38,178 nucleotides of DNA, from contig CALIKQ010000001.1 in the NCBI GenBank assembly GCA_938017975.1, forward strand, positions 1 through 38,178, written 5' to 3'. The notes beneath the pieces are model-generated. The model was not told the origin of the DNA. It made no database searches and saw only the letters and a list, made by a program, of their open reading frames with translations. This document shows, one piece after another, positions 2,466 through 34,056 of this stretch (positions are counted from its first letter, which is position 1; each line of letters begins with the position of its first letter). This stretch comes from an uncultured Pseudomonadales bacterium (GTDB lineage: Bacteria > Pseudomonadota > Gammaproteobacteria > Pseudomonadales > Azotimanducaceae). A program made the translations under genes and the position numbers.

Positions 2466-3119
2466 TTACTGCATGTGACGAATCACTTTGCCTTCAACCA
2501 TGAAAATGACTTCCTCTGCGATGTTGGTGCATAAGTCTCCAACACGTTCTAGATTCGAGGAGATCGTTGCCAAGGACATGGCTTGACTGACAAGGGAGGG
2601 CGCGTTTTCTACTGCGACCCGGAGGGCTTGGTAGTTCTTTGTGTGGAGGTCATCAACCAAATCATCAATTTGCACCACCCGGCGAGCAAGATCGGGGTCC
2701 TGATTGACCAAGGCTTCAAGGCTCAGAGCAACCATATCCTGAACCGTATCTGTCATCGCGTCGATAGGCAGATCGAAGGCGTGGCTGGGCTCTTTCATCA
2801 ACGCTTTAACGCGCTGAACAATGTTGACGGCTTGGTCGCCCATACGTTCCAAATCATTAGTAACTTTCATAACGACAACGATAAAACGTAGATCGATCGC
2901 GACGGGTTGGTGAAGCGCTAAAATCTTAAGGCAGTTTTCCTCTATGTCTACCTCCAGCTCATTGATATGAAGTTCAAAAGTGTTGACGTCCTCAGCAAGC
3001 GAAAGCTCACGGGTATTAAAGAGCTCGATTGATTTCAAGGTGCTCTCACGGACTAGATCGCCGAGTCGAAGGATATCTTTGCGGAGATTATCTAGATCAC
3101 GCTGTAAATGAATGCTCAT
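2466..3119 (-). CDS. phoU: Phosphate signalling complex protein PhoU
   Basis: A 217-residue all-helical PhoU with two three-helix repeats, residues about 1-110 and 115-215. Each repeat carries the family metal-site pattern: E-x-x-x-D with DLERMGDQAVNIVQR in the first, and NLERVGDLCTNIAEE in the second. PhoU connects the Pst transporter with the histidine kinase PhoR, suppressing the Pho regulon in high phosphate and limiting Pst uptake. It is the last gene of the pst operon, 9 nt after pstB. The length is close to that of E. coli PhoU (about 240). The regulator pair phoB/phoR is not in this window. Confidence 0.96.
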   Translation of the reverse strand: MSIHLQRDLDNLRKDILRLGDLVRESTLKSIELFNTRELSLAEDVNTFELHINELEVDIEENCLKILALHQPVAIDLRFIVVVMKVTNDLERMGDQAVNIVQRVKALMKEPSHAFDLPIDAMTDTVQDMVALSLEALVNQDPDLARRVVQIDDLVDDLHTKNYQALRVAVENAPSLVSQAMSLATISSNLERVGDLCTNIAEEVIFMVEGKVIRHMQ

Positions 3120-3128
3120 AAAAACTCC

Positions 3129-3887
3129 TTAGCCAAACCTTCCTGTAACGTATTCCTCAGTGCGCGTTTCTTTAGGTCGTGTAAATACTTGATCGGTCTC
3201 CCCATATTCAATGAGGACGCCGTTCTCGAGGAACGCCGTATAGTCTGAGACACGTGCAGCTTGCTGCATGTTGTGGGTGACAATAACGATGGTAAATTTC
3301 TTTTTCAGTTCAAACAGCAAGTCTTCGATTCGGGCAGTCGAAACCGGATCAAGCGCTGAACAGGGCTCGTCCATGAGAATGATTTCTGGTTCCATCGCAA
3401 GCGCCCGCGCGATACAGAGCCTTTGCTGTTGTCCCCCAGATAGGTTGAGGGCCGAATCATTGAGCCGGTCAGAAACTTCATCCCAAAGCGCTGCTTGTTT
3501 GAGCGCAGTCTCTACGCGCTCGTTGGGGTCGCCGGGCAGTTTATTGATGCCCGGGCCCCAAGCAACATTTCGGTAAATCGATTTTGGAAATGGATTTGCT
3601 TTTTGGAATACCATGCCAATGCGGAGTCTGGCCTCAACAGGGTCAACATTCTCCGCGTAAAGGTCTGAGCCCCGATAAAGAATTTGCCCTCGATGGGATA
3701 CACCGTCGATGAAATCATTCATTCTATTCAATGATCTCAAGAATGTGCTCTTGCCGCAGCCCGAGGGGCCGATAATGGCGGTAATTTTTTTCTCTAATAT
3801 AGGAAGTGTGACATTTTTTACGGCGTCATCTTTACCATAAGCAATAGAGAGATCGAGTGCGTTTAGGATTGGAACTGCGTCGCTCAT
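3129..3887 (-). CDS. pstB: Phosphate ABC transporter ATP-binding protein PstB
   Basis: A 252-residue ABC ATPase that powers high-affinity phosphate import with PstC and PstA. Walker A is GPSGCGKST at residues 40-48, the signature is LSGGQQQR at 149-156, Walker B is IILMDEP at about 169-175, followed by the D-loop SALD and the switch histidine in IVTHNMQQA. The [17 protein letters not shown] block is diagnostic for PstB among ABC ATPases. The ATG overlaps the pstA stop by 4 bp (ATGA), which implies translational coupling. Confidence 0.97.
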
Positions 3888-4759
3888 GATTTTGAACCTC
3901 GGTATCGGATATAAACGGCTAGTGCATTCATCAGGAGCAGGACTCCGAGCAACACGATGATGCCCCCTGCAGCCAGTTCATGGAAAGTCTCTTGAGGCCT
4001 TGCGGTCCAGTTAAAGATCTGGATTGGCAGTGCGGTGAACTCGTCCATTGGGCTCTCTGGTAGAAACGCGACGTACGTTAATGCGCCAATCATAATCAGT
4101 GGTGCGGTTTCACCAATTGCTCGTGACAGGGCAAGAATGATTCCTGTCAAAATACCTGGCAATGCGGCTGGCAAGACGTGTGCTCTAACCACTTGCCAAC
4201 GTGTTGCGCCTAAGGCAAATGCGGCCTGCCGAAGCGAATTTGGGATCGCTCTGATGGCCTCTTTAGCGGCAATGATGATCACGGGTAAGATCAGCAGCGA
4301 CATGGTCATTGCGCCAGCAATGACGCTTCGATTAAGTCCCATAAAGCGCACAAACAATGCAAGGCCTAAAATTCCAAATACAATCGAGGGAACACCAGCG
4401 AGGTTTGCAATATTGACTTCTATAAGCTGAGTCCACCGGTTCTTGGGAGCGTACTCTTCTAAGTAAATCGCCGCGAGCACGCCGGTTGGAATCGCGAGCA
4501 GCGCAGTCAGCGAAACGAGCCATAATGTTCCGACGAAGGCTGATAAAATCCCGGCTTTTTCAGGAAATCTAGAGGGATAGCTGGTCATAAACTGCCAATC
4601 TACCCAGCGATATCCATCGCTGATAATTTGATAAAGCAGGATGCCTAGGATCAGAACTGCAGAGCCTGTCACTGCAATACAAAAGTACTTAAAGAAAGTT
4701 GCCTTCGCTTGACGCTGGCGCAAACGCTGACTGGTTACAAGATCTTTATTGGTTGTCAT
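3884..4759 (-). CDS. pstA: Phosphate ABC transporter permease PstA
   Basis: A 291-residue inner-membrane permease with about six transmembrane segments and the binding-protein-dependent transport domain. The EAA coupling loop is visible around residues 165-195 ([20 protein letters not shown]). The region [20 protein letters not shown] is typical of PstA. It works as a heterodimer with PstC. It starts 8 nt downstream of pstC and overlaps pstB by 4 bp, so expression is presumably operonic. Confidence 0.96.
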
Positions 4760-4767
4760 TTTAAACT

Positions 4768-5667
4768 CTACTCGTAGACTTCTCTAAAACGTCTCATGAT
4801 CCAAGTGCCAAAAATATTGAGGATCAGAGTGGTCGCAAAGAGCACTGTCGCGACCGCAAACAGTGTCTGATAGGTCAAGCTTCCAGCGGGTGTATCACCA
4901 AGACTGACCTGCACGATATAAGCTGTCATTGTTTGTATAGATTCAAGTGGGTTGAGGGTTAAGTTTGGGGTTGCGCCTGCCGCAAGCGTTACTGCCATTG
5001 TCTCGCCGATCGCCCTAGAGACAGCTAGAACAAAGGCCGCAAAAATTCCAGACAGTCCAGCCGGAACCACGACGCGAGTCGTTACCTCAAATGACGTGGC
5101 GCCCAAAGAATAGGCGCCGTGCCGCAGAGACTGAGGTACTGCCCGGAGCGCATCATCGCAAAGCGACGCCACCATGGGTAAGACCATGATGCCCACCACA
5201 ATGGCGGCGCTGGCAGCATTGAAGACTTGAGTGTCTGGGATAAAGTTACGGATCAGAGGTGTGACAAAGGTTAGCGCAAAAAAGCCATACACCACCGTCG
5301 GAATACCCGCCAAAATCTCAAGGGTTGGCTTGATGATTGATCTCGCTCGAGCACTGGCGTATTCACTCAGAAACACTGCGCAAGCTACGCCGATGGGTAA
5401 TGCAAGCAAGGCGACACCAACCACGATCAGAGCCGTGCCTGCCACCAAAGGCAAAATTCCATAGCTTTTGGGCTCAAGTAGGGGCGTCCAGCGGGTGCCG
5501 AAGAGAAACTCCGTCACCGAGACAGACTCAAAAAAAATCAGCGTCTCTCGGATGAGGATAAAAATCACGACAGCAGTTGTAATGACCGATAGGAACGCGC
5601 AAAGGAAAAAGACGCGCTCCAGTATCGACTCGCCCCAACGGATGGATTTTCTGGAAAGTGCAGTCAT
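4768..5667 (-). CDS. pstC: Phosphate ABC transporter permease PstC
   Basis: A 299-residue inner-membrane permease and partner of Pst[21 protein letters not shown] near residue 80 is the hallmark PstC segment before the permease domain, and the EAA loop reads [20 protein letters not shown]. About six transmembrane helices. An AAGGG ribosome site lies 6 nt before the ATG. It follows pstS after an 85-nt gap, a usual place for differential expression of the binding protein, although I see no convincing attenuator hairpin in that gap. Confidence 0.96.
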
Positions 5668-5752
5668 ACGGAACCCTTTATCCTAGGGGACATTGATTTT
5701 CGCAGACGCGCCAATAGTGCACGTTTCCAGATGGGAGCGCATCGTCGGCACA

Positions 5753-6736
5753 TCAATTTTTGTCCGTGAGGTGCGGCAATGGTGCATCGCCGTGATAGCT
5801 TGAGCCGCTATTGCGATTTGCAACACGTTGCCTTGCTGCCTCGTAAGCAGCCTCGGGAAGAGCGATATAGCCGACTTCCTGAGCTAAAATCGCTGCATTG
5901 TTGAGATAGAAGCTGATGAAACCAGAGATTTGAGGCTGATCAAGTGCGGCAGCGTTGGCGTAAATGTAGATCGGTCTGGAAAGTGGGCTGTAACTCCCGT
6001 CGTTAATGGTTTTTTCGGTGGGTGCGATAGGCCCTTTGCCCCCATCAATGGGCACGATCTTAAGCTTCTCAGCATTTTCAGAGTAGTATGCGTAGCCGAA
6101 ATAGCCCAAAGCATAGGTGTCGCCAGAGATGCCTTGAACAAGAACGTTATCATCCTCGCTCGCAGTGAAATCAGGACGAGAAGCTTGCTCTTTTCCATTA
6201 ATGGTGCCGGTGAAATAGTCAAAGGTGCCGGAATCAGTGCCTGGACCGTAGAGGCGTATGCGCTGATCGGGCCAGCCGCTGCGGACGTCCGCCCAGGTTG
6301 TTACCGGTGAATCGGGTTTCCAGATTAAGTTCAGTTCTGCCACTGTTAGGAAGTCGACCCAGTCGTTTTCGGGGTTAACAACCACTGAGAGACCATCGAA
6401 CGCAACGGGGATTTCTATGTACTCGATCCCTGTCGCGTTGGCTCTTTGGTTTTCGCTGGCTTTGATGGGGCGGGATGCAGCGTTGATATCGATTTCTTGG
6501 TTTAAGAACTTTTTGAATCCGCCTCCGGTCCCGGATACGCCAACCGTAACCCTGACTCTTGGTTGAACCGCTAGATATTCCTCGGCAACAGCCTCGCTGA
6601 TCGGAAACACCGTACTCGAGCCGTCCATCCGTACGGCCCCGGATAATTGAGAGTCATCAGCCGTTGCCGCGGTATCGCGATCGTTGCTGCAGCCGAGGAT
6701 TAGACAAAGTACTGTGAGCATTAGAATGGGTTTCAT
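5753..6736 (-). CDS. pstS: Phosphate-binding lipoprotein PstS
   Basis: A 327-residue periplasmic phosphate-binding protein and first gene of pstS-pstC-pstA-pstB-phoU. The N-terminus is a lipoprotein signal with lipobox I-L-G-C, lipidated Cys16, so it is probably membrane-tethered rather than free. Phosphate-contacting motifs of the PstS family are visible: GSSTVFPISEAVAEEY, SGTGGGFKKF and INAASRPIK, and later YGPGTDSGTFDYF. AAGGAG lies 10 nt before the ATG. Upstream, 6792-6825 carries TTAA-core repeats that I read as a Pho box. Confidence 0.95.
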   Translation of the reverse strand: MKPILMLTVLCLILGCSNDRDTAATADDSQLSGAVRMDGSSTVFPISEAVAEEYLAVQPRVRVTVGVSGTGGGFKKFLNQEIDINAASRPIKASENQRANATGIEYIEIPVAFDGLSVVVNPENDWVDFLTVAELNLIWKPDSPVTTWADVRSGWPDQRIRLYGPGTDSGTFDYFTGTINGKEQASRPDFTASEDDNVLVQGISGDTYALGYFGYAYYSENAEKLKIVPIDGGKGPIAPTEKTINDGSYSPLSRPIYIYANAAALDQPQISGFISFYLNNAAILAQEVGYIALPEAAYEAARQRVANRNSGSSYHGDAPLPHLTDKN

Positions 6737-23219: not shown

Positions 23220-24287
23220 CTAGGTGCTTTGGATTAGGTCGATAATGACCTTCGCGACTTGATCTGGGGCATTTTCTTGAACAAAGTGTCCGCCACCTTT
23301 AATGGTGGTGTGTGGTAGGCCCTCAGCGCCAGGAACCTTTTCTCTAAATTCAGCTTCCCCTCCCCGGGTAACAGGATCGTTGTCTGCGAAGGCGCAGAGA
23401 AATGGCTTGTTGAAAGTTTTAAAAAATTCCCAGGCTTTACGCTGCTCTTCGAGTGATGCCGATGTCGGCAGCGTCGGCACTTGGCTGGGCATCGCCCTGG
23501 GTCCCATTTTGTAACTTGGATCAGGAAAAGGGGCTTCATATGCTTTAGCCAGCGGGGTGGCGAGGGGTGAGGTCAATCCTAGGGTGTTCAGGAAAACTTT
23601 AAAAATTTGCACTGGGATCGGCGGCGGTTGGATTGACATCGACATTGCCAAACCGATGGGTAAATCCTCTGTTTCCCAGCACCACTTCTGCCAATAGGCA
23701 AACTTGCGCGCGGGATGACCGTCAGAGCCCATCTTGCTAAGGGCGCGTGACATCGCCATCAAGCTTGGCGTGGGCTGGTTTGCTCGAAAGTCTTCAATGT
23801 CTTTGATGAGGTCAGCGGGGGCATCGGGATTGTAGGGTAGTCCAGTATTCGAAATGACCACTCTGTCGAATCGGTCCCCGTGGTTGACAACGAGCCTCAG
23901 GCCAACCAGACCACCCCAGTCCTGACCAAAAAAGGTGATTCCCTTGAAATCATTGGTCTCAAGCCACTGGCCCATCCATTCCACTTGGCGCTCATAACTG
24001 TAGTCTTCTCGCGCCGCGGGTTTATCGGATTTTCCGTACCCGATAAGGTCTGGCGCAATGACCCTCATGCCGGCTTGAGTGAGGTAGGGGATAACGTGTC
24101 GGTACAGGTAGCTCCACACAGGTTGGCCGTGCATACAAAGTACCAGTGGCCCGTCAGCTGGTCCCTCATCCAGATGATGGACACGCAGCGCATCACCTTC
24201 CTGAGTTTGAATGGTGGTGTAGTTCGGTGTGAAAGGATAGTCCTTGAGGCCTTCAAAACATGAATCAGGCGTTCGCAGTATTTTCAT
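23220..24287 (-). CDS. Haloalkane dehalogenase, HLD-I-like
   Basis: A 355-residue alpha/beta hydrolase. HGQPVWSYLYRHVIP holds the oxyanion-hole motif, and the nucleophile is Asp123 in FFGQDWGGLVG with the halide-stabilising Trp124 next to it. The acid lies in LCAFADNDPVTRGG and the base His in KGGGHFVQENAP. F-G-Q-D-W-G-G and the D-P-V-T-R-G-G segment are typical of haloalkane dehalogenases of subfamily I, which hydrolyse R-X to R-OH plus halide without cofactor. It is longer than the usual 290-310 residues because of an N-terminal extension and a long cap (about 150-260). The start is at the ATG at 24287 with AAGGGA upstream. It lies 180 bp downstream of the TauD-type gene on the same strand and could be the third gene of that operon. 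Confidence 0.85.
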   Translation of the reverse strand: MKILRTPDSCFEGLKDYPFTPNYTTIQTQEGDALRVHHLDEGPADGPLVLCMHGQPVWSYLYRHVIPYLTQAGMRVIAPDLIGYGKSDKPAAREDYSYERQVEWMGQWLETNDFKGITFFGQDWGGLVGLRLVVNHGDRFDRVVISNTGLPYNPDAPADLIKDIEDFRANQPTPSLMAMSRALSKMGSDGHPARKFAYWQKWCWETEDLPIGLAMSMSIQPPPIPVQIFKVFLNTLGLTSPLATPLAKAYEAPFPDPSYKMGPRAMPSQVPTLPTSASLEEQRKAWEFFKTFNKPFLCAFADNDPVTRGGEAEFREKVPGAEGLPHTTIKGGGHFVQENAPDQVAKVIIDLIQST

Positions 24288-24467
24288 TATGGAGTGTCCC
24301 TTTAATTGAGCAGCCAAAAGTAATGCAGATCATTATAATCAAAAATGCTGTAGGTGCATTCAACTGGGTGAGGGCGTTGCATAGAGATGCGCTTGAATCA
24401 ATGATGGTCGGTGACGAGTTCCTCAGTCGTCTGGAGGCCGTTTCAAGTAATCGAGTGGACCGAGCTG

Positions 24468-25328
24468 CTAGGCGTTTTTGGGTGGTGCCTCGCGACTTAG
24501 CACTTGGCAGCGCTTCATTAGGCGTCGCGCAGTTTCATCGAAATCGTCCCGACGATGCAACACGCGTCGGTTATCCCAGATGATGAGGTCAAACGGTTGC
24601 CATTGTTGTTGCCAGACATGATCAGGCCGTGCAGCATAAGACCAGATTTCATCGAGTAATGTTTCACTCTCTTGCAGGCTGAGCCCTGGGATATAGGCCC
24701 ATTCTCGCCGACCAAGATACAGGCACTCGGCACCAGTTTCGGGATGCGCCTGAATAATAGGGTGGATGGCGCCAGGTGCTTCCCTCGGGTCATCGAATGG
24801 TTCGTAGCCTGGGCGAAGTTTGCCGATGCTGGTGTGCGCGGCATTGTGCTTGATTGTGAGCTTTCGCAGCCGCGCCTTGAGTGTGCTGGGAATGGCGTTC
24901 AACGCTGCATGCTGATCTGAAAAATATGTATCGCCACCGGTGGCGGGTGTCTCAATACACAGCAGGATGCTCGCAGGCGGCGGAACCTCAACGTAGGTCA
25001 TATCCGAATGCCATGAGGCTTCAGCGTTCCCAAGCCCCCCAATGGGCTTGCCGTCTTTAATGATGTTCGAAAGTTGAGTGACGTAACGATTTTTGATTTT
25101 TGCCCGGTCAGCAGTTGGCATGCGGCCCATTGGAATCTCTTCTAAAGGGCCGAATCTGGCGCTGAAGGTTTGTAGTAGGTCCTCTGTCATCGTTTGTTGA
25201 CGAACTCGCAAGACGCCAAAAGTCAGCCAGGTTGAATAAAGTTGAGCGAATTCGGAGTCTGTGATGGCATTGAGACTGATATCTGAAATGTCTGCGACGA
25301 AGTGCTGGTTAATCGGCGTGATCTTCAT
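24468..25328 (-). CDS. TauD/TfdA-family Fe(II)/2-oxoglutarate dioxygenase, selenoprotein operon
   Basis: A 286-residue dioxygenase. His107-x-Asp109 lies in SWHSDMTYVE, the distal His258 in WDNRRVLHRRDDF, and the 2OG Arg in ETARRLMKR. It is a distant paralogue of the gene at 18394-19197; GGDTYFSDQHAALNAIP is the usual T-x-F/Y-x-N/D block. The ATG at 25328 is 1 nt after the stop of the selenoprotein gene, and AAGGA overlaps the end of that gene, so they are translated in tandem. Substrate unknown; shared function with the selenoprotein is inferred from the coupling. Confidence 0.88.
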   Translation of the reverse strand: MKITPINQHFVADISDISLNAITDSEFAQLYSTWLTFGVLRVRQQTMTEDLLQTFSARFGPLEEIPMGRMPTADRAKIKNRYVTQLSNIIKDGKPIGGLGNAEASWHSDMTYVEVPPPASILLCIETPATGGDTYFSDQHAALNAIPSTLKARLRKLTIKHNAAHTSIGKLRPGYEPFDDPREAPGAIHPIIQAHPETGAECLYLGRREWAYIPGLSLQESETLLDEIWSYAARPDHVWQQQWQPFDLIIWDNRRVLHRRDDFDETARRLMKRCQVLSREAPPKNA

Positions 25329-25329
25329 T

Positions 25330-26529
25330 TTAGGTCCTTTTTTTTGCGCCTGAAACAGCCGACCTAGGTGCCATAATCCTTGCAAAGGCCGACAGGCCAT
25401 CGTCATCACTAAAACGTTCATGCAAAGCTAGCATGGCTTTACCCATAAGGGTTTCTGACCAGAAGATCTGCTCTATGTAGGTGTGCTCATAAGCCCCAGG
25501 TTGTGCAGTGATTGCCTCGAGGTAGAACACCTTTGTATCCTCCAGGGCTGCTTTGAACCACTTAAGCTCAGTGACTGGAAGTTCGTTGTTCTCCAATAAG
25601 TCCGCAAATTTTAGCGCATTATCCATTACGGAGAGCGACGAGAGACCAACCAGTGTGCGGCCTTTTTTGCGTCTGCGACCCAGATCATGCCATGGTTTGA
25701 GTGCCTCGACTTCGGCTCTGAGAGCCTCTGTCCAGCCTTCTATATCGCTGGTTTTTTTAGCGAAGGTAACCGGGCAAGCTGGCGCATGCTCGATCTCTAT
25801 TTGAGGGGCATCTTCCTGGTAGTCCTCAAGGACTGGCCCGTCGTTTCTGTTCAAAAGGTCAAGGGCAGCCGAAATGACGCGATGCTGAAAGGCTGGATCT
25901 CCGGGCTTACCCAAAGGCCGCCCCAAAGGGAAGCTGACCCACAGGGCTCTAGGGGGCTGCATGCTGGCTGTGTTTTCTCGAATCAAACTGATGCCGGTGG
26001 TCATAATGCCTTCACGTTCGAGGTAATAAGACAGCGCGCAGACTGCGCGCGTGCAGTTGGGTCAAACCGGCGTTAAAAACACCGCGTCCACTTTGTCTTG
26101 CTTGAGCATACCCGCAACTTGGACGGCGTTTGCTTCATAGGCTGCGGGCTCAAGTCCCGCGCCCATAAAGCTATAATGAATGTCAGCTAAGGAGCCTATT
26201 TTTCCGGCATCTCGAAGTTCGCGAAAACGTTCTATTGGGAAAACGAGATTGACGTCTTCTGCAAAACCGCTTTTATCGAAATTCACTGAGCTGTGTGACA
26301 TGACTAAATCATCGGCGTTTTCATCGCCTGCTATCGGCCTGAATGTTGCATCAGCAAATTCGAAAGCGAGATCATCTCTAAAGTGAAGCCCGGCCGTCGT
26401 AATCAGTGCGAATCGAAGCGTATTGATGTTTTGATTGAGTCGGTTCCAGGCAGAAGGCCCTAGCGGCGGATCATTTTTAGTGAGTAAGTGCGCTTGCTCA
26501 GCTTCAGAGAGATCTTTGAGTCGCACCAC
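25330..26529 (-). CDS. Selenoprotein, glycine/sarcosine/betaine/D-proline reductase selenoprotein B family (in-frame UGA read as Sec)
   Basis: One 399-residue protein that a standard translation splits into a 155-residue and a 224-residue ORF. Both are in the same frame and separated only by UGA (complement of 26062-26064) plus 19 sense codons before the next ATG. Read through, the junction is LTPV-Sec156-PNCTRAVCALSYYLEREG: a U-x-x-C redox motif with Cys159, and continuous helix and strand on both sides. VFPIERFRELRDAGKIGSLA, HYSFMGAG before it and PPRALWVSFPLGRPLGKPGD after it are, from memory, hallmarks of the family. In clostridial relatives the B subunit attacks the substrate with selenolate; the aerobic proteobacterial members have no known reaction. 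A SECIS-like hairpin follows the UGA. Starts at GTG 26529, AGGAG 9 nt upstream. First gene of an operon with a TauD-type dioxygenase. The alternative, a nonsense mutation of a Cys homologue, is less likely because of the hairpin. Confidence 0.88.
26031..26054 (-). promoter_or_regulatory. Putative bacterial SECIS element
   Basis: On the coding (minus) strand, GCGCGCA (26050-26044), loop GUC (26043-26041) and UGCGCGC (26040-26034) form a perfect 7-bp stem. Past one bulged C (26051), GCA and UGU add three pairs. The loop begins 18 nt after the UGA. E. coli fdhF also has its G-U loop about 18 nt after UGA, flanked by GCA and UGC. SelB binds such a loop to recruit Sec-tRNA during elongation. Confidence 0.7.
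26062..26064 (-). other. Selenocysteine codon UGA (Sec156)
   Basis: The in-frame TGA on the minus strand stands at the first position of a U-P-N-C motif where Cys-containing homologues would carry Cys. It joins the two halves of the selenoprotein B-family gene. Confidence 0.8.
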
Positions 26530-27203
26530 TGCTCGCTACTCCTGGTTGTTTAATCTAAATGGTGGGACCACCTGAAATGTACTCGCTGAGATCATTACGC
26601 TGTGCACTTGATGAAGAGGTCAATTTAACAACACAATGCATGAACGTTAAAGGGATGGGATCAAAAGGGCAGCTCATCGGTCGGGAACACCCCTGTGACC
26701 TTGCGCCTAGATGGGAGCATGATGAATCAGTGTATTGAGATGGGTTTTGAACGCGAGTCCGAGTAAGCCTTTCGTGGCTGATGTCACAGTATTGTTCATC
26801 GTCTTCGTTGCTTTTGGGGTATCTGATGGCGATGATGTTTTTTGCACGTTGGCAAAACGCGAGGTCAGTGCGTTATAATGGTAAGCATTAAATTTTATGG
26901 GCGTGCCAGAAATTCAAGAGGGCATTGGCATGGATGCTGGGGCGGCGGGCCAACAAGTTCCGTGACTGGGGCTCTGTGGACAAGCTAGCAGTGTCATGCT
27001 GCAAAAACGCCAGTCATGAGATTCTGAAGCCATCGTATAAATAGTCTTTGCTGGCCCGTCTTGGTAAGGTTTTTATAGCGCGCTTGCAGGCCTTAATGGC
27101 GCGCTTAGCTGATCGTCATCGCCTTCGCTCACCGCAGAGATGACGCAGTTTTTAGCGCTGGCCCGGAACAAGAAAATTGATGACGACAATTAGGAGCAAC
27201 AAG
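26530..27203. other. Long divergent intergenic region
   Basis: About 670 bp between the selenoprotein operon (minus) and the GST-like gene (plus). It holds only short open frames without family features (for example about 59 codons from 26561). A sigma-70-like pair is present at 26849-26879. No tRNA is visible; in particular I did not find selC here. AGGAG at 27192-27196 serves the start at 27204. Confidence 0.45.
26849..26879 (+). promoter_or_regulatory. Possible sigma-70 promoter
   Basis: TTGGCA at 26849-26854 and a perfect TATAAT at 26874-26879, with a 19-bp spacer, slightly longer than optimal. If used, it would transcribe the GST-like gene with a leader of about 315 nt. Confidence 0.25.
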
Positions 27204-28265
27204 ATGAGTGACAGCAGAATCGTTCAAGAATTAATGGGTGCTCCAGGTTCGCCCTACACTCGCAAGATGCTCAGTTTGATGCGTTTTCGACATATTCCTT
27301 ATCGGTTAGAACGTCAGTCCCGCGTTGCAAACTCCAGTGAGGACAGGCATCGAAAAAAACGGGTGCAACCTAAGGTTCCATTGTTGCCCACTTTCTATTT
27401 TAAGGATGATGCCGGGGGTGAAATCGCTGTGACGGACTCTAGTCCGTTGATCCGACGATTTGAGTCAGAATACGAGGGCCGCTCGGTGATTCCCACAGAT
27501 CCTGCTTTGGCGTTTATTGACATGTTACTCGAAGACTATGGCGACGAATGGTTGACCAAAGCGATGTTTCATTATCGTTGGCACTACGATGCTGACATTA
27601 AAAAAGGTGGGGATATTCTGCCGAGATGGGGCGGTATTGCTCAACCCGAATCTGAAGTGCAGCCAATCAGTGAGTTTATTAGATCGCGACAGATTGCGAG
27701 GCTCTCCTATGTGGGTTCAAATGAAATTACGAAAGCCACCATTGAGGAAAGTTTCAAGCGTTTTATACACCTGCTTGATAAGCATCTGACGTTGCACCCT
27801 TTTTTAATGGGGGAGCGTCCCGGTGCTTCCGATTTTGCGATCTATGGTCAGCTCACATGCTTGGCACTGTTTGACCCAACACCCCAAGCAATCATTCTTT
27901 CTGAGTGCCCACGCGTTTATGCCTGGGTCGAGGTCGTTGAGGAGCTATCGGGTTATTTGGTGTCCGATGACGATTGGTTGGATATCGATCATCCACCTGA
28001 AACATTAAAAGATATACTCAATGAAGTGGGTCGAATTTATGCGCCTTATCTTCTCGGCAATGCCCAAGCCGTGATGGAGCGGGCTGATCTCCTAGAGATG
28101 GAACTCGATGGCAAGGCCTGGGTGCAAAATCCCTTTACCTATCAAGCCAAATGCTTGCAATGGCTGAGAGAGGCTTATGCAGCGCTCAGCGATAACGACC
28201 GGTCGCGAGTAGACGGAATTTTAGAAGGCACTGGGGTTCCTCAGATTTTTGTTGATGGCTCCTAA
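27204..28265 (+). CDS. Glutathione S-transferase-like protein
   Basis: A 353-residue protein. The N-terminal thioredoxin-fold domain starts VQELMGAPGSPYTRKMLSLM (Ser/Tyr in the glutathione-activating region), has a cis-Pro-like VPLLPTFYF and then TDSSPLIRRFE (the T/E-S-x-x-I motif that binds the gamma-glutamyl part). The C-terminal helical domain includes FLMGERPGASDFAIYGQL, the N-capping box (S/T-x-x-D) of GSTs. An extra C-terminal region of about 100 residues makes it longer than usual (200-240). AGGAG is 7 nt before the ATG. Conjugation or isomerisation of a lipophilic substrate is likely. Confidence 0.83.
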   Translation: MSDSRIVQELMGAPGSPYTRKMLSLMRFRHIPYRLERQSRVANSSEDRHRKKRVQPKVPLLPTFYFKDDAGGEIAVTDSSPLIRRFESEYEGRSVIPTDPALAFIDMLLEDYGDEWLTKAMFHYRWHYDADIKKGGDILPRWGGIAQPESEVQPISEFIRSRQIARLSYVGSNEITKATIEESFKRFIHLLDKHLTLHPFLMGERPGASDFAIYGQLTCLALFDPTPQAIILSECPRVYAWVEVVEELSGYLVSDDDWLDIDHPPETLKDILNEVGRIYAPYLLGNAQAVMERADLLEMELDGKAWVQNPFTYQAKCLQWLREAYAALSDNDRSRVDGILEGTGVPQIFVDGS

Positions 28266-28405: not shown

Positions 28406-28548
28406 AGCAAAGAGGAATCTTGCCTTAGCTCGATGACTTTGTTGGTTGCCTGTCTTGGCCATCGACTTTGCGCTCAAAATAAAAAGATGCTCAAGATTTA
28501 GCCTCAGTGACCGTTAACCCACTAGGAGCTATTTCAATTGGCAGTCCC

Positions 28549-31500
28549 ATGCTGAAATCAGTGTCGTATCTATGGATCGTGTTACTGCTGATCGGTTGTG
28601 GGCGCAATCCAGCCGAAAACAGTGGCGAAGTCGCCGTTGTGAGCAACAACCTGCCGATTCTTTCTGTCACCCAAGATCCCTTCTTTCTCTCTGGTGATAC
28701 CCAGGTTGCTGCTGTGATTGCTTTTTCGGATGCCGAGGGAGATACAGTCTCCTTATCGATAGTTGGCGATGATGCAGCACAATTCTCTGTTGCAGACAAT
28801 GGTGAGTTAACCTTTTTAAGTCCACCGCGATTTAGTCAGCCATCAGATATAGACCGAAATAGCGTCTATCGCGTTGATGTTGCCGCCTTCGATGGAACCG
28901 GCACCACAGAAATCGCTGTGTCGATTCAAGTGGTGGATGCTATTTACGGGATTGTGGGAACGCCACCTTTGGTAGGCGCTGAAGTGACCTATGATCAAAA
29001 TTTTACCGGCGTCAAGGCAGGCTCTGGCTTTTCAATGGTGACGCCAAGCAGTGGCAAATTCCGATTTCGACGTCTAATGGTTTCCGAAAATCAGCAACAG
29101 GTGGCTTATAGCTTCATGGGATCGCCAGCTGATGCGGCACGGCCAATTCAGTACGCTTTGGTTTCAAGGGTCCCCGCTGACCCTGTGATCGAGGCAATTC
29201 GCATCACGCCAATATCCACAATGTTATACAGTCTGCGAGACCCTGCTCGTAAAGCAGCATTTTTGTCGACCCTGGGGCTTAGAGCACGGCTTGGCAGTGA
29301 GCCAGGCCGCCCTTATTGGGAAGAGTTCGTTTTAAGCGCCGGGAATGCTGATCAGCTGGCACGCCTCAATTTGCAGTTTGCGGTCATGATGTCGGTGGGT
29401 GCGAGCCTTTTTATGCCTGAACCGGAGGATGTCACGCTCGAGGGATCCCTGCTTTTAGCCCGAACGCTGGCTGACGGTATCATCACGGAAGGTCCAGAAA
29501 TGCTGACCGAAAGTGCGAAGTTACAAGAGCCGCTCAAGCAACTCGCGAGCGCTTCGAAGAACCCGCGGTTGGTTCAAGCTGATCGCTTGCAGAAGGTCGC
29601 CAGAGCGATAACCGATCTAACTGGACTGTTGGCTGATGAACGTCTTGCCCCCAGCGGCGTTGATGCTGCATTGATTGCGGCAGCCGGTAGTGACGACTTG
29701 GCTGGGGCAACCGTCAACCTTTTTGATGAACTGCTGAGTGATTCAGATTTTGAGGCTGCTGTGCAAGTACCGGCGCTACTGCCAATGAGCAAAGCTGTTG
29801 TGGCCGATGATTTAGATGGTGACGGAATGCCGGATGTCTTTGATTTGGACAATGACGGCGACGATGTCAACGATGTCATGGATGCTTTTCCAATGAACCC
29901 ACTAGAGGCACGTGATGATGATCGCGATGGTATTGGGAATAATGAGGACCCTGACGACGACAATGATGGAGTCGCTGATCAAATCGATGCCTTTCCCTTG
30001 GACCCGATTGAAACCAATGACTCAGATGGGGACGGCGTAGGGGATGAGTCAGATGCATTTCCTTTTGATGCGGGCGAGACACGGGATTCGGACCAGGATG
30101 GTTTGGGAGATAACGCCGACACCGACGATGATGGTGATGGCATTGCTGATGCCCAAGACGATTTTCCCCTCGACCCAAGTGCGTCCCTTGATTCTGACGG
30201 TGATGGGTATGATGACGCGGTTGATGCGTTCCCAATGGACCCGGCTGAGCACGCCGATGAAGACGATGATGGTGTGGGGAATTTTCTTGACGAGGATGAC
30301 GATAACGACGGCGTAGCGGATGCGCTAGACGATTTCCCTTTTGATCCAAGTGAAAACAGCGACAGTGACTTTGATGGCATCGGTGATAACCAGGATGCTT
30401 TTCCATTTGGGGCTTCCGAGTTTGAGGATGCCGATGGTGATGGGCTTGGTAACAACGAGGATGACGATGATGACAACGATTCAGTCATCGATGCCGAGGA
30501 CGCTTTTCCTTTTGACGGCTCAGAATCCGCTGATGCTGATGGGGATGGTCGGGGCGATAATGCGGATTTTGATGATGATAATGATGGCGTCGAGGATGGC
30601 GATGACGCATTTCCTTTTGATCCAGACGAGGTTGCTGATGCTGATGGCGATGGAGTTGGCGACAATGCTGATGCATTCCCCTCGAATGCAAGCGAGTCTT
30701 TCGACACGGATGGTGACGGCACCGGAAACAACGCCGATGACGATGACGACGGCGATGGCGTCTCCGATAAAGATGATTTATTTCCGTTAGACGGTTCTGA
30801 GACATTGGATTCTGATGGTGACGGGATTGGGGATAACTCAGACACCGATATAGATGGCGATGGTGTTGAGAATGATGATGACGCTTTGCCACTCGACCCT
30901 TCAGAGTCCTTGGATACCGATGGGGACGGAGTTGGAGACGGTGTTGACCCTGATGTTGATGGGGATGGCGTGCTCAATGCAGATGATGCCTTCCCTTTAC
31001 AAGCCGGCGAGACGGTGGACACAGACGGCGATGGGATCGGTGATGGCCTAGATTTGGATGATGACGGAGATGGCGTTGAGGATGTCCTTGATGCATTTCC
31101 CAAAGATGCAGCCGAAACGATGGATACGGACGGTGATGGGGTTGGTGACGGCGCCGACTTAGATGATGACGGAGACGGCGTCAACGATGAAGATGATGCA
31201 TTTCCATTAGATGGGTCAGAAACCTTGGATACCGATGCCGATGGCGTTGGCAACACAGTCGATCAAGATGACGACGATGATGGCATTGCTGATGCTGAGG
31301 ATGCTTTTCCTCTGGATCCAGAAGAGGCGAGCGACACAGACGGTGATGGCATCGGCAACAATGCTGATGACGATGATGATGGGGATACTATCTTAGACGA
31401 AGATGACGCCTATCCCTTGGTGCCGATCGGCGAGCTGATTGATACCGACGGTGATGGCCGTCCGGATGATTGTGATGCGGCCTGTCGAGCCTTAGGAATG

Positions 31501-34056
31501 CTGGCTGATATCGACGATGATGCGGACGGAATTCAAGATGCTGAAGATGCTTTCCCCCTAGATGCAACTGAGACGCTCGACACCGATGCGGATACGGTTG
31601 GCAACAATGCCGACCCTGACGACGATGGTGATGGTGTTGAGGATGCGAACGATCTGTTTCCACTCGACAGCACCGAAAATCTCGATACGGATGGGGATGG
31701 TATAGGCAATAACGCTGACACCGATGATGATGGTGATGGGGTGCCTGACGCAATTGATGATTTTCCCCTCGATGCGGAAGGAGCGACTGACTCTGATGGC
31801 GATGGTGTTGAGGACAGAAGCGATGCGTTTCCTTTCGATGCCGCCGAGTCAGTCGATACTGACGGTGATGGAACTGGCAACAATGCGGATGCGGACGACG
31901 ATGGCGACGGTGTCGCTGACACGCTCGATGTTTTCCCGTTGAATTCGGCGGAATCAGTCGATAGCGATGGTGATGGTGTTGGTGATAACGCTGACGGCGA
32001 TGATGATGGCGATGGCGTTGCGGACGTGATTGATGTTTTTCCACTCGATGCCGAAGAGAGTGTTGATACTGACGGAGATGGAACTGGCGATAACGCGGAT
32101 ACCGATCGTGATGGCGACGGTGTTTTCAACGATATCGATGCGTTTCCCTTAGATGCCTCTGAAACGCTTGACACGGACGGAGACGGCACAGGCGATAATG
32201 TGGATTTGGACCGTGATGGTGATGGCGTTGAAAACGAACAGGATGCATTTCCTCTGGATGAAACGGAAACGATTGACACCGATGGCGACGGGGTTGGTGA
32301 CAATGCGGACACGGATCGCGATGGTGACGGTGTTGCCAATGATGAGGATGCGTTTCCGCTCGATGAAACCGAAACCCTAGACACTGATGGGGATGGCACG
32401 GGCGATAATTCGGATGCGGACCGCGACGGTGACGGCGTTGCTAACGAGGAAGATGCGTTCCCCTTGGATGAAACTGAAAGCTTGGACACGGATGCCGATG
32501 GTATTGGTGATAATGCAGATCCAGACCTTGACGGTGATGGTGTTGCTAACGATGAGGACGCTTTCCCACTTGATGAGACCGAAACCCTAGACACGGATGG
32601 GGATGGCACGGGTGACAACGCGGACACGGATCGTGATGGTGATGGCGTCGCAAACGATGAAGATGCGTTCCCCTTGGATGAAACCGAAAGCTTGGACACG
32701 GATGCTGATGGCATTGGTGACAACACGGATACCGACCTTGACGGTGATGGCGTTGCAAACGACGAGGATCTTTTCCCGCTCGATGAGACCGAATCCCGAG
32801 ATACTGATGGGGATGGGACGGGTGACAATGCCGACACGGACCGTGATGGTGACGGTGTTGAAAACGATGAAGATGCATTTCCGCTCGACGATTCAGAGAC
32901 GTTAGACACAGATGGAGACGGTGAAGGGAATAACGCTGACGCTGACGATGACGGAGACGGTGTCGCTGATGATGTGGATCTATTTCCATTAGATGACACC
33001 GAAACCATTGATTCTGACGGTGATGGCACTGGTGATAACGCCGATATCGATGATGATGGTGATGGCGTGAATGATGATGAGGATGCCTTTCCGTTAGATG
33101 CCAGTGAGAGTTTGGACTCTGATGGTGATGGGATTGGTAACAACGTGGAAACCGATGACGATGCTGATGGGGTGGATGATGAAGATGACGCCTTTCCGCT
33201 TGATAGCTCAGAGACACGAGATACTGATCAAGATGGAATTGGCGATAACGCTGATCTCGATGACGATGGTGACGAAGTCTCCGATGAGAACGATGCGTTT
33301 CCGCTCGATGCAACCGAGAGCCTGGACACGGATAACGATGGTGTCGGCAATAACACAGATACGGATGACGACGGAGATGGCATTTTGGATACGGGGGATG
33401 GCTACCCCTTAGTTGCTATCGGCGCTCTTTTGGATACAGATGGCGACGGCCGGCCCAACGACTGTGACACCGCTTGTCAGGGTTCTGGAATGCAAGCGGA
33501 TCTTGATGATGACGCCGACGGTGTGGCTGATGTCAGTGATGCATTTCCCTTGAATGCCAGTGAAACGTTGGATACGGATCTCGATACCATTGGTAATAAC
33601 GCTGATGCCGATGACGATGGGGATGGCGTTATCGATACCAATGATGCCTTTCCTCTAGATGCAACAGAGACGGTTGATACGGATGATGATGGCGTTGGCG
33701 ACAACGCGGATGCAGATGATGACGGTGACGGTGTCGATGATGATGCTGACCCTTTTCCATTGGATTCGACGGAGAGTGTCGACACTGATGGCGACGGGGT
33801 TGGCAATAATGCAGACACGGATGATGATGATGATGGCTTTGCAGATGCCAGCGATGCATTTCCTCTGGATGCCTCGGAGAGACAGGATACCGATGGTGAT
33901 GGCATCGGAAACAATGCCGACACGGACGATGACGGTGATGGGCTCACCGATGACGAAGAAGACGTGCTGGGGACTAACAAGCTGCTTGCCGACACCGACA
34001 ACGACGGCGTCAATGATGGTGAGGATGCTTTCCCGTTGGATCCAACAAGAAGTTAG
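28549..34056 (+). CDS. Giant thrombospondin type 3 repeat lipoprotein
   Basis: An 1835-residue surface protein. MLKSVSYLWIVLLLIGC is a lipoprotein signal (lipidated Cys17). Residues about 34-133 form a cadherin-like beta domain (AQFSVADNGELTFLSPP, VYRVDVAAFDG). A mixed region runs to about 415, then thrombospondin type 3 calcium repeats fill the rest: units of about 35 residues such as DTDGDGVGDNADTDDDGDGV followed by D-A-F-P-L-D. I count 41 D-x-F/Y/L-P motifs. The end is EEDVLGTNKLLADTDNDGVND, the common closing unit, without a C-terminal sorting signal. The protein should bind many Ca2+ ions and form a stiff acidic rod, suggesting adhesion, surface layer or matrix contact. The ATG at 28549 was chosen because the lipoprotein signal starts there; the frame is open from 28507. 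Confidence 0.9.
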   Translation: MLKSVSYLWIVLLLIGCGRNPAENSGEVAVVSNNLPILSVTQDPFFLSGDTQVAAVIAFSDAEGDTVSLSIVGDDAAQFSVADNGELTFLSPPRFSQPSDIDRNSVYRVDVAAFDGTGTTEIAVSIQVVDAIYGIVGTPPLVGAEVTYDQNFTGVKAGSGFSMVTPSSGKFRFRRLMVSENQQQVAYSFMGSPADAARPIQYALVSRVPADPVIEAIRITPISTMLYSLRDPARKAAFLSTLGLRARLGSEPGRPYWEEFVLSAGNADQLARLNLQFAVMMSVGASLFMPEPEDVTLEGSLLLARTLADGIITEGPEMLTESAKLQEPLKQLASASKNPRLVQADRLQKVARAITDLTGLLADERLAPSGVDAALIAAAGSDDLAGATVNLFDELLSDSDFEAAVQVPALLPMSKAVVADDLDGDGMPDVFDLDNDGDDVNDVMDAFPMNPLEARDDDRDGIGNNEDPDDDNDGVADQIDAFPLDPIETNDSDGDGVGDESDAFPFDAGETRDSDQDGLGDNADTDDDGDGIADAQDDFPLDPSASLDSDGDGYDDAVDAFPMDPAEHADEDDDGVGNFLDEDDDNDGVADALDDFPFDPSENSDSDFDGIGDNQDAFPFGASEFEDADGDGLGNNEDDDDDNDSVIDAEDAFPFDGSESADADGDGRGDNADFDDDNDGVEDGDDAFPFDPDEVADADGDGVGDNADAFPSNASESFDTDGDGTGNNADDDDDGDGVSDKDDLFPLDGSETLDSDGDGIGDNSDTDIDGDGVENDDDALPLDPSESLDTDGDGVGDGVDPDVDGDGVLNADDAFPLQAGETVDTDGDGIGDGLDLDDDGDGVEDVLDAFPKDAAETMDTDGDGVGDGADLDDDGDGVNDEDDAFPLDGSETLDTDADGVGNTVDQDDDDDGIADAEDAFPLDPEEASDTDGDGIGNNADDDDDGDTILDEDDAYPLVPIGELIDTDGDGRPDDCDAACRALGMLADIDDDADGIQDAEDAFPLDATETLDTDADTVGNNADPDDDGDGVEDANDLFPLDSTENLDTDGDGIGNNADTDDDGDGVPDAIDDFPLDAEGATDSDGDGVEDRSDAFPFDAAESVDTDGDGTGNNADADDDGDGVADTLDVFPLNSAESVDSDGDGVGDNADGDDDGDGVADVIDVFPLDAEESVDTDGDGTGDNADTDRDGDGVFNDIDAFPLDASETLDTDGDGTGDNVDLDRDGDGVENEQDAFPLDETETIDTDGDGVGDNADTDRDGDGVANDEDAFPLDETETLDTDGDGTGDNSDADRDGDGVANEEDAFPLDETESLDTDADGIGDNADPDLDGDGVANDEDAFPLDETETLDTDGDGTGDNADTDRDGDGVANDEDAFPLDETESLDTDADGIGDNTDTDLDGDGVANDEDLFPLDETESRDTDGDGTGDNADTDRDGDGVENDEDAFPLDDSETLDTDGDGEGNNADADDDGDGVADDVDLFPLDDTETIDSDGDGTGDNADIDDDGDGVNDDEDAFPLDASESLDSDGDGIGNNVETDDDADGVDDEDDAFPLDSSETRDTDQDGIGDNADLDDDGDEVSDENDAFPLDATESLDTDNDGVGNNTDTDDDGDGILDTGDGYPLVAIGALLDTDGDGRPNDCDTACQGSGMQADLDDDADGVADVSDAFPLNASETLDTDLDTIGNNADADDDGDGVIDTNDAFPLDATETVDTDDDGVGDNADADDDGDGVDDDADPFPLDSTESVDTDGDGVGNNADTDDDDDGFADASDAFPLDASERQDTDGDGIGNNADTDDDGDGLTDDEEDVLGTNKLLADTDNDGVNDGEDAFPLDPTRS
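29803..34050 (+). repeat. 105-bp-type coding repeat array (about 41 units)
   Basis: DNA encoding the thrombospondin type 3 units. The typical period is 105 bp (35 codons), with some shorter units of 22-24 codons. Between about 32260 and 32800 copies are nearly identical and alternate in a two-unit, 210-bp super-repeat: the same string (CCCTTGGATGAAAC) starts at 32461 and 32671, and GAAACCCTAG at 32371 and 32581. This indicates recent expansion by unequal crossing over. Confidence 0.85.

What the first reader, a model, noticed from the sequence alone, without database searches (positions are those of the whole stretch)
25330..26529. A hidden selenoprotein: two ORFs are one gene with an in-frame UGA at a U-x-x-C site
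Seen: ORFs 26529-26065 and 26004-25330 share a frame, and the 19 codons between UGA and the next ATG are sense codons that read PNCTRAVCALSYYLEREGI, a natural continuation. UGA falls at the first position of U-P-N-C. Known: selenoproteins of the glycine/sarcosine/betaine/D-proline reductase B family carry Sec in such a motif. Inference: this organism makes selenocysteine, and standard annotation would report two fragments. The catalytic role of this family in aerobic marine bacteria is undescribed as far as I know.
Basis: partly seen in the sequence, partly recalled or inferred. Interest (0 to 1): 0.92.

Follow-up and report, generated by a model that had tools for sequence, protein, structure and literature searches.

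The report
Selenoprotein hidden behind a UGA codon
Two neighbouring open reading frames are really one gene in which a "stop" codon is most likely read as selenocysteine; the protein seems to belong to a selenoprotein family already catalogued from seawater as a proline reductase, but it appears to lack that enzyme's usual partner and sits next to an oxygen-using enzyme, so its chemistry is open.

Summary
ORFs 26529-26065 and 26004-25330 are one 399-codon gene with a single in-frame TGA (codon 156, 26064-26062) at U-P-N-C. It is very probably a selenoprotein. All 15 full-length orthologues aligned have TGA in that column, with purifying selection on both sides. A hairpin just after the UGA covaries strongly: score 0.70 against 0.17 shuffled. 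The stretch folds more stably than synonymous recoding predicts in 35 of 36 sequences. The genome has a tRNA-Sec (UCA), selD and two paralogues with one TGA each. A distant paralogue carries Cys there. selA and selB were not found in this assembly, but genes beside them in same-genus relatives are missing too, which suggests an assembly gap.

The best NCBIfam model is PrdB (113.9 bits, below cut-off), ahead of GrdB types (at most 50.9). Seawater metagenome papers already list such 'proline reductase PrdB' selenoproteins. The pyruvoyl partner was not found in 57 of 58 genomes. A TauD-type dioxygenase gene follows directly in 11 of 15 loci. I read it as a partner-free Sec reductase, substrate unknown.

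The parts
25330..26529 (-). selenoprotein gene (PrdB/GrdB-related), 399 codons, GTG start, TAA stop
   Evidence: Pfam GRDB 34.4 bits, cut-off 22; most orthologues begin M-V-R-L at the same place
26062..26064 (-). in-frame UGA, codon 156, most likely read as selenocysteine (U-P-N-C)
   Evidence: Cys at this position in the distant paralogue L081
26033..26051 (-). SECIS-type hairpin, nt +13 to +31 with the U of UGA counted as 0; loop with GU. The outermost pair (+13/+31) is weakly supported, so +14 to +30 is the firm part
24468..25328 (-). TauD/TfdA-family Fe(II)/2-oxoglutarate dioxygenase gene, starting 1 nt after the selenoprotein's stop
   Evidence: Pfam TauD 190.7 bits, cut-off 27; adjacent in 11 of 15 loci
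23220..24317 (-). alpha/beta hydrolase gene (haloalkane-dehalogenase subfamily model) downstream; possible, weak link
   Evidence: NCBIfam PRK00870 385.7 bits, cut-off 265; cluster F5, in 4 of the 16 neighbourhoods, the window included
27177..28265 (+). glutathione S-transferase-like gene upstream, divergent; possible, weak link
   Evidence: Pfam GST_N_3 39.4 bits, cut-off 22; cluster F3, in 5 of 16 neighbourhoods, the window included

Best explanation
One gene encodes a 399-residue selenoprotein. During translation the UGA at codon 156 is read as selenocysteine because a stem-loop directly downstream (SECIS) recruits SelB with Sec-tRNA-Sec; the next gene, a TauD-type dioxygenase, is translated behind it. 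The protein has a PrdB-like alpha/beta domain, with Sec between a strand and a helix, and a mostly helical C-terminal part of its own. I think Sec156, helped by Cys159 (a UxxC pair that can form and release a selenenylsulfide), reduces a small organic substrate or cleaves a carbon-heteroatom bond in it, without the pyruvoyl partner that proline and glycine reductases need, in one pathway with the dioxygenase. Shown: the frame, the conservation, the covarying hairpin, tRNA-Sec and selD, no partner found, the gene pair. Inferred: Sec insertion in the cell, the redox chemistry, the shared pathway. Unknown: the substrate. Odds: 0.95 for selenoprotein status alone; the confidence below is for the whole statement, chemistry included.
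For: Frame and UGA. TGA in the same column in 15 of 15 orthologues, purifying selection on both sides. In 8 of 11 orthologues L023-L033 the next in-frame stop after codon 156, the apparent end of the gene, is also TGA, so the two TGAs must be told apart by context. Hairpin: 86.4% of cells paired, 35 cells changed on both sides, covariation score 0.701 (shuffled mean 0.174; slid versions at most 0.150) on 22 sequences picked by hand from 38. Over the 37 rows kept (one a repeat), pairs +17/+27, +18/+26 and +19/+25 are formed in 37 of 37. The 30-nt stretch folds below the synonymous-recoding mean in 35 of 36 distinct sequences, mean z -2.03; window z -3.5. tRNA-Sec, anticodon UCA; selD 272 bits, cut-off 125. 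Two paralogues with UPVC. Cys form CPVC in L081. In 58 genomes, homologue and any selA match: both 31, homologue only 5, selA only 4, neither 18; P = 6e-7, kinship not corrected. Pyruvoyl-partner family in 1 of 58 genomes, or 1 of the 36 that have a homologue. TauD next door in 11 of 15 loci.
Against: selA and selB have no match over cut-off in this assembly; four same-genus assemblies (G003, G004, G006, G014) with a homologue also lack both. The tRNA-Sec scores 45.8 bits, under the Rfam gathering score of 47, and Rfam matches of that kind ring in all 14 control genomes, so it rests on ARAGORN. No Cys form was seen inside the orthologue clade, only in a distant paralogue on a long branch. The hairpin's outermost pair forms in only 4 of 22, one measure (pairs with a double change) does not beat its shuffles (5 against 3.8; 116 of 500), and L027, with TGA, has no stable hairpin (z +0.83). 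The model is weak (pLDDT 68.6, pTM 0.54) and has no fold match at E <= 0.001. TauD is not adjacent in 4 of 15 loci. The neighbours give no substrate. No protein evidence.
Confidence: 0.55

Rival explanations
1. The selenoprotein is a redox helper: Sec156-Cys159 works as a thiol/selenol oxidoreductase for another protein, for example keeping the neighbouring dioxygenase or its product reduced, and has no substrate-cleaving activity of its own.
For: UxxC is a common redox pair (passages of PMC2398784); TauD directly behind it in 11 of 15 loci.
Against: Paralogues lie beside other genes (an acyl-CoA thioesterase in L083) and a genome can hold up to seven matches (G057), which looks more like a set of enzymes for different substrates. 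The characterised PrdB and GrdB act on small molecules (passages of PMC13188914).
Confidence: 0.3
2. The gene is a real D-proline reductase subunit (PrdB) or glycine/betaine/sarcosine reductase B subunit, so its chemistry is the known pyruvoyl-dependent reductive C-N cleavage.
For: TIGR04483 PrdB is the best NCBIfam model, 113.9 bits over residues 25-227; earlier metagenome papers use this name for marine sequences.
Against: Below the PrdB cut-off (300) and below the broad TIGR01918 cut-off (47.3 against 65.45). PF09338, the pyruvoyl partner, was not found in the window's genome, nor in 57 of 58 genomes in all, while the same search finds it at 468.8 bits next to a full GrdB in G029. It has about 170 C-terminal residues beyond the PrdB match (model length 238). 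PF09338 members match the PrdA model only weakly (34.4 bits), so a divergent PrdA could be missed.
Confidence: 0.05
3. The species has lost selA and selB; the gene is now a truncated protein of 155 residues or a decaying pseudogene.
For: No selA match and no selB match over cut-off in the assembly.
Against: Frame, hairpin (z -3.5), two more one-TGA paralogues, tRNA-Sec and selD are intact. Three genes near selAB in same-genus relatives have no close match here: none for an ABC permease, 34% or less for a D-cysteine-desulfhydrase-like gene, 37% or less for a LolC/E-like gene, while the same queries match same-genus loci at 65-96%, 52-90% and 44-87% identity. So a whole block seems to be missing from the assembly.
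Confidence: 0.04
4. UGA is read by another route (near-cognate read-through, or a changed code) and not as Sec.
For: None direct; Sec insertion was not measured.
Against: 8 of 11 orthologues apparently end in TGA as well, so TGA is not a general sense codon; tRNA-Sec present; hairpin kept by compensation; Cys at the site in L081.
Confidence: 0.02

Closest known systems
D-proline reductase subunit PrdB (TIGR04483; 'proline reductase PrdB' of the Sargasso Sea and GOS selenoproteomes)
   Same: Best NCBIfam match; Sec at U-x-x-C; same domain (profile 17-219 of 238). Probably the same marine family that the two metagenome papers counted (inferred from name, Pfam number and motif; their sequences were not compared).
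   Different: Far below the equivalog cut-off; no PrdA-type partner found; an extra C-terminal part, of which residues 248-399 have no Pfam match; TauD partner gene.
GrdB/GrdF/GrdH, glycine, sarcosine and betaine reductase selenoprotein B (PF07355, TIGR01918)
   Same: Over the Pfam GRDB cut-off (34.4 against 22 bits); Sec in the homologous C-terminal half.
   Different: Matches only from profile position 269-275 on, so the N-terminal half of GrdB is not matched; UxxCx4C in place of UxxCxxC; no GrdE/G partner found. A pair of that type (UGTCTRC) exists in G029 for contrast.
Fluoroacetate-cleaving FarB/FarE of a rumen bacterium (PMC10838667, passages)
   Same: Precedent for a GrdB relative with Sec proposed to attack a carbon-halogen bond.
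   Different: An anaerobic GrdB/GrdE-type pair with a partner; no partner was found for the window protein. The hydrolase gene of the haloalkane-dehalogenase subfamily downstream is only a hint.

Membership tests
bacterial selenoprotein | in-frame UGA conserved at one aligned position | tested here: met
   15 of 15 orthologues
bacterial selenoprotein | SECIS hairpin just after the UGA | tested here: met
   recoding z -3.5 for the window; covariation 0.701 against 0.174. No published SECIS model was run
bacterial selenoprotein | Cys homologue aligned at the Sec position | tested here: met
   CPVC in L081, a distant paralogue; none seen in the orthologue clade
bacterial selenoprotein | tRNA-Sec and selD in the genome | tested here: met
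   ARAGORN tRNA-SeC UCA; Rfam 45.8 bits against 47; selD 272 bits
bacterial selenoprotein | selA and selB in the genome | tested here: inconclusive
   not found here; selA over cut-off in 33 of 58 and selB in 32 of 58 genomes searched; flanking genes missing here too
bacterial selenoprotein | selenium in the protein | not testable with these tools
   needs 75Se labelling or mass spectrometry
D-proline reductase PrdB | score over the TIGR04483 cut-off | tested here: not met
   113.9 against 300 bits
D-proline reductase PrdB | PrdA-type pyruvoyl partner (PF09338) in the genome | tested here: not met
   no match in 57 of 58 genomes, G000 among them; a very divergent PrdA could be missed
D-proline reductase PrdB | UxxC with Sec | tested here: met
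   UPNC, on the Sec reading
GrdB family selenoprotein B | Pfam GRDB domain over gathering score | tested here: met
   34.4 against 22 bits
GrdB family selenoprotein B | TIGR01918 over cut-off, with the N-terminal half | tested here: not met
   47.3 against 65.45 bits; profile positions 269-418 of 431 only
GrdB family selenoprotein B | UxxCxxC motif | tested here: not met
   UPNCTRAVC; the second Cys is Ser or Gly in several orthologues

The most novel reading that the evidence does not exclude
The abundant marine 'proline reductase PrdB' selenoproteins are, at least in this lineage, not proline reductases: they are partner-free selenol enzymes of oxygen-using bacteria, duplicated into several paralogues for different substrates, and this 400-residue subfamily forms a two-step unit with a 2-oxoglutarate dioxygenase (oxidise, then reductively cleave, or the reverse), a chemistry of which I know no described example.
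Probability: 0.4. Interest if true: 0.72.

Novelty: new variant of a known kind. Interest (0 to 1): 0.5.

Why it matters
Standard gene callers split such genes, so the protein is seen as two fragments. The Sargasso Sea and GOS papers ranked 'PrdB' among the commonest marine selenoprotein families; the former gave it D-proline reduction as its role (passages). If those sequences are of this family, the lack of the catalytic partner (found in 1 of 36 genomes with a homologue) and the pairing with an oxygen-dependent enzyme make that role doubtful, and they give a concrete gene pair to test.

Tried and rejected
Pseudogene or sequencing error: rejected by conservation in 15 of 15 orthologues and by the covarying hairpin.

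Loss of the Sec machinery: thought unlikely; selAB not found, but neither are genes that flank it in relatives (same queries against same-genus loci as control).

GrdB as the family name: replaced by PrdB-like; the partner test was negative.

Structure: the AlphaFold2 model from 6 sequences is weak (mean pLDDT 68.6, pTM 0.54) and Foldseek found nothing at E <= 0.001. PDB sequence searches gave only matches with E above 1. Rfam at gathering scores gave nothing in the window.

Literature: 'GrdB-like' with selenoprotein and proteobacteria, Halieaceae with selenoprotein, 'betaine reductase selenoprotein B' with selenoprotein, and Congregibacter with selenocysteine found no paper. Selenoprotein with PrdB and gammaproteobacteria found two reviews, of which I read passages. 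Proline reductase with PrdB, selenoprotein and aerobic listed 8 papers; I read passages of three of them and only the listing of the other five. One search listed 10; passages of four were read. So I found no functional study of this subfamily in these searches; most subscription papers are not held.

Rows dropped or repeated: L039 (broken copy) was left out of the SECIS means; L068 is the same sequence as L029, and was removed and not counted among the 15 loci. L034 (partial) and L073 (interrupted) were left out. The 22 sequences were chosen by hand from 38 to thin out near-identical ones; one search holds all. Searches covered 58 genomes, searched 97. The 31/5/4/18 table counts any selA match at E <= 0.001; two of the 31 (G030, G032) have only pieces below the cut-off.

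Full report
What is there. On the minus strand, GTG 26529 opens a frame that runs to TAA 25332-25330 with a single TGA at 26064-26062. With TGA as Sec it is 399 residues with the motif U-P-N-C at 156-159. The best NCBIfam models are D-proline reductase PrdB (113.9 bits, cut-off 300), then betaine and sarcosine reductase B subunits (about 51 bits), all below their own cut-offs. Pfam GRDB is over its cut-off, 34.4 against 22 bits, and its match runs to residue 153, three before the Sec.

Is UGA read as selenocysteine? Four lines say so. First, 15 of 15 full-length orthologues have TGA in the same alignment column, and both sides are under purifying selection: pN is 0.15-0.37 before and 0.18-0.40 after the codon, pS 0.74-0.94. 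In 8 of the 11 orthologues L023-L033 the next in-frame stop, the apparent end, is also TGA. Second, a hairpin at +13 to +31 (U of UGA = 0) has GU in its loop in 36 of 37 rows (part of a mostly conserved Val codon) and is kept by compensation. On 22 sequences chosen from 38, 86.4% of cells pair, 35 cells changed on both sides, and the covariation score is 0.701 against 0.174 shuffled; slid versions reach at most 0.150. The outermost pair forms in only 4 of 22, and the number of pairs with a double change (5) does not beat the shuffles (mean 3.8). Against random synonymous codons drawn with the gene's own usage, the 30-nt stretch folds more stably in 35 of 36 distinct sequences, mean z -2.03; the window has z -3.5, and L027 is the exception at +0.83. 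Third, the genome has selD (272 bits) and a tRNA-Sec with anticodon UCA by ARAGORN; Rfam scores it at 45.8 bits, under its threshold of 47. It also has two paralogues, each with one TGA, at UPVC. Fourth, a distant paralogue has CPVC there.

selA and selB. Neither was found over cut-off in the window's assembly. Of 58 genomes searched, 33 have selA and 32 have selB over cut-off. Counting any selA match, homologue and selA are both present in 31, homologue only in 5, selA only in 4, neither in 18 (Fisher P = 6e-7, kinship not corrected). In same-genus relatives with long enough contigs, selA and selB sit together, flanked by a D-cysteine-desulfhydrase-like gene and an ABC-permease-like gene and, further out, a LolC/E-like gene (the gene names are my reading of the sequences). 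In G000 the permease has no match, and the other two have only distant matches, 24-37% identity, whereas the same queries match same-genus loci at 65-96%, 52-90% and 44-87% (the query's own locus left aside). A missing block in a 79-contig, 96.5% complete assembly is the simplest reading; it is not proven.

What kind of protein. The GrdB models match only from position 269-275 on, so the N-terminal half of GrdB is not matched, and UxxCxxC is not there. It carries about 170 residues beyond the PrdB match; residues 248-399 have no Pfam match and are mostly helical in a weak model (pLDDT 68.6). PF09338, the family of pyruvoyl partners, was not found in 57 of 58 genomes, G000 among them; 36 of the 58 have a homologue. 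The one hit (468.8 bits, G029) stands beside a full-length GrdB with UGTCTRC, which shows that the search works; it matches the PrdA model only weakly, so a divergent PrdA could be missed. So by these tests it is not filed as a D-proline or glycine reductase.

Neighbourhood. A TauD-family gene begins 1 nt after the stop. Of 15 distinct loci, 10 have this TauD cluster directly downstream and an eleventh (L070) a divergent TauD; L092, L069 and the two betaproteobacterial loci L071 and L072 do not. Relatives of the downstream alpha/beta hydrolase are in 4 of 16 neighbourhoods and of the GST-like gene in 5 of 16, the window included. One paralogue in G000 overlaps the end of an acyl-CoA thioesterase gene. 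The tree puts the window within a supported clade of 16 rows (100/100), next to L023.

Who it is. A named relative inside the same clade is an uncultured Halieaceae MAG (L070), so a halieacean-type gammaproteobacterium is likely; a marine, aerobic life is inferred from this and from the dioxygenase. Neither was tested.

What was known. The Sargasso Sea study lists 42 and the GOS study 235 'proline reductase PrdB' selenoproteins with UxxC; GOS also counts 110 Cys homologues (passages of PMC1088965 and PMC2398784). Two reviews keep PrdB as D-proline reductase (passages of PMC13188914 and PMC9312934), and a 2016 survey counts proline reductase in 110 bacteria (passages of PMC5029168). I did not compare sequences with those sets. 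A GrdB relative is proposed to cleave a C-F bond in a rumen bacterium (passages of PMC10838667).

Mechanism. I propose a partner-free selenol reductase: Sec156 attacks the substrate, Cys159 resolves, a thiol recycles. I put selenoprotein status alone at 0.95. The confidence of 0.55 is for the whole statement including direct action on a small molecule; the redox-helper rival stands at 0.3.

Noticed in passing
window 28507-34056 (+): A 1849-residue ORF made largely of DGDG-type acidic repeats that look calcium-binding; the opposite strand carries long ORFs that look spurious.
   Followed up: no
window 2466-6736 (-): Genes that look like a phosphate-uptake operon (phoU, pstB, pstA, pstC, pstS), judged by eye from the translations.
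   Followed up: no
L073 6001 to about 10217: An alphaproteobacterial homologue seems cut near residue 199 by an insertion with transposase-like ORFs (by eye); a matching remainder appears about 3 kb on.
   Followed up: partly
L039: The homologue in same-genus genome G012 is broken, with several stops and frame changes, although its UGA site survives.
   Followed up: partly
L099 155-2733 (-): One relative (G029) has a GrdG/GrdB-type pair with UGA in UGTCTRC, the only PF09338 hit in 58 genomes.
   Followed up: yes
L083 3208-4062 (+): A second G000 paralogue overlaps the end of an acyl-CoA thioesterase gene, just after genes that look like S-adenosylhomocysteinase and a methyltransferase (the last two by eye).
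   Followed up: partly
L009 1387-3624 (-): selD of this genome is fused behind what looks by eye like an NADH-dehydrogenase-type flavoprotein.
   Followed up: no
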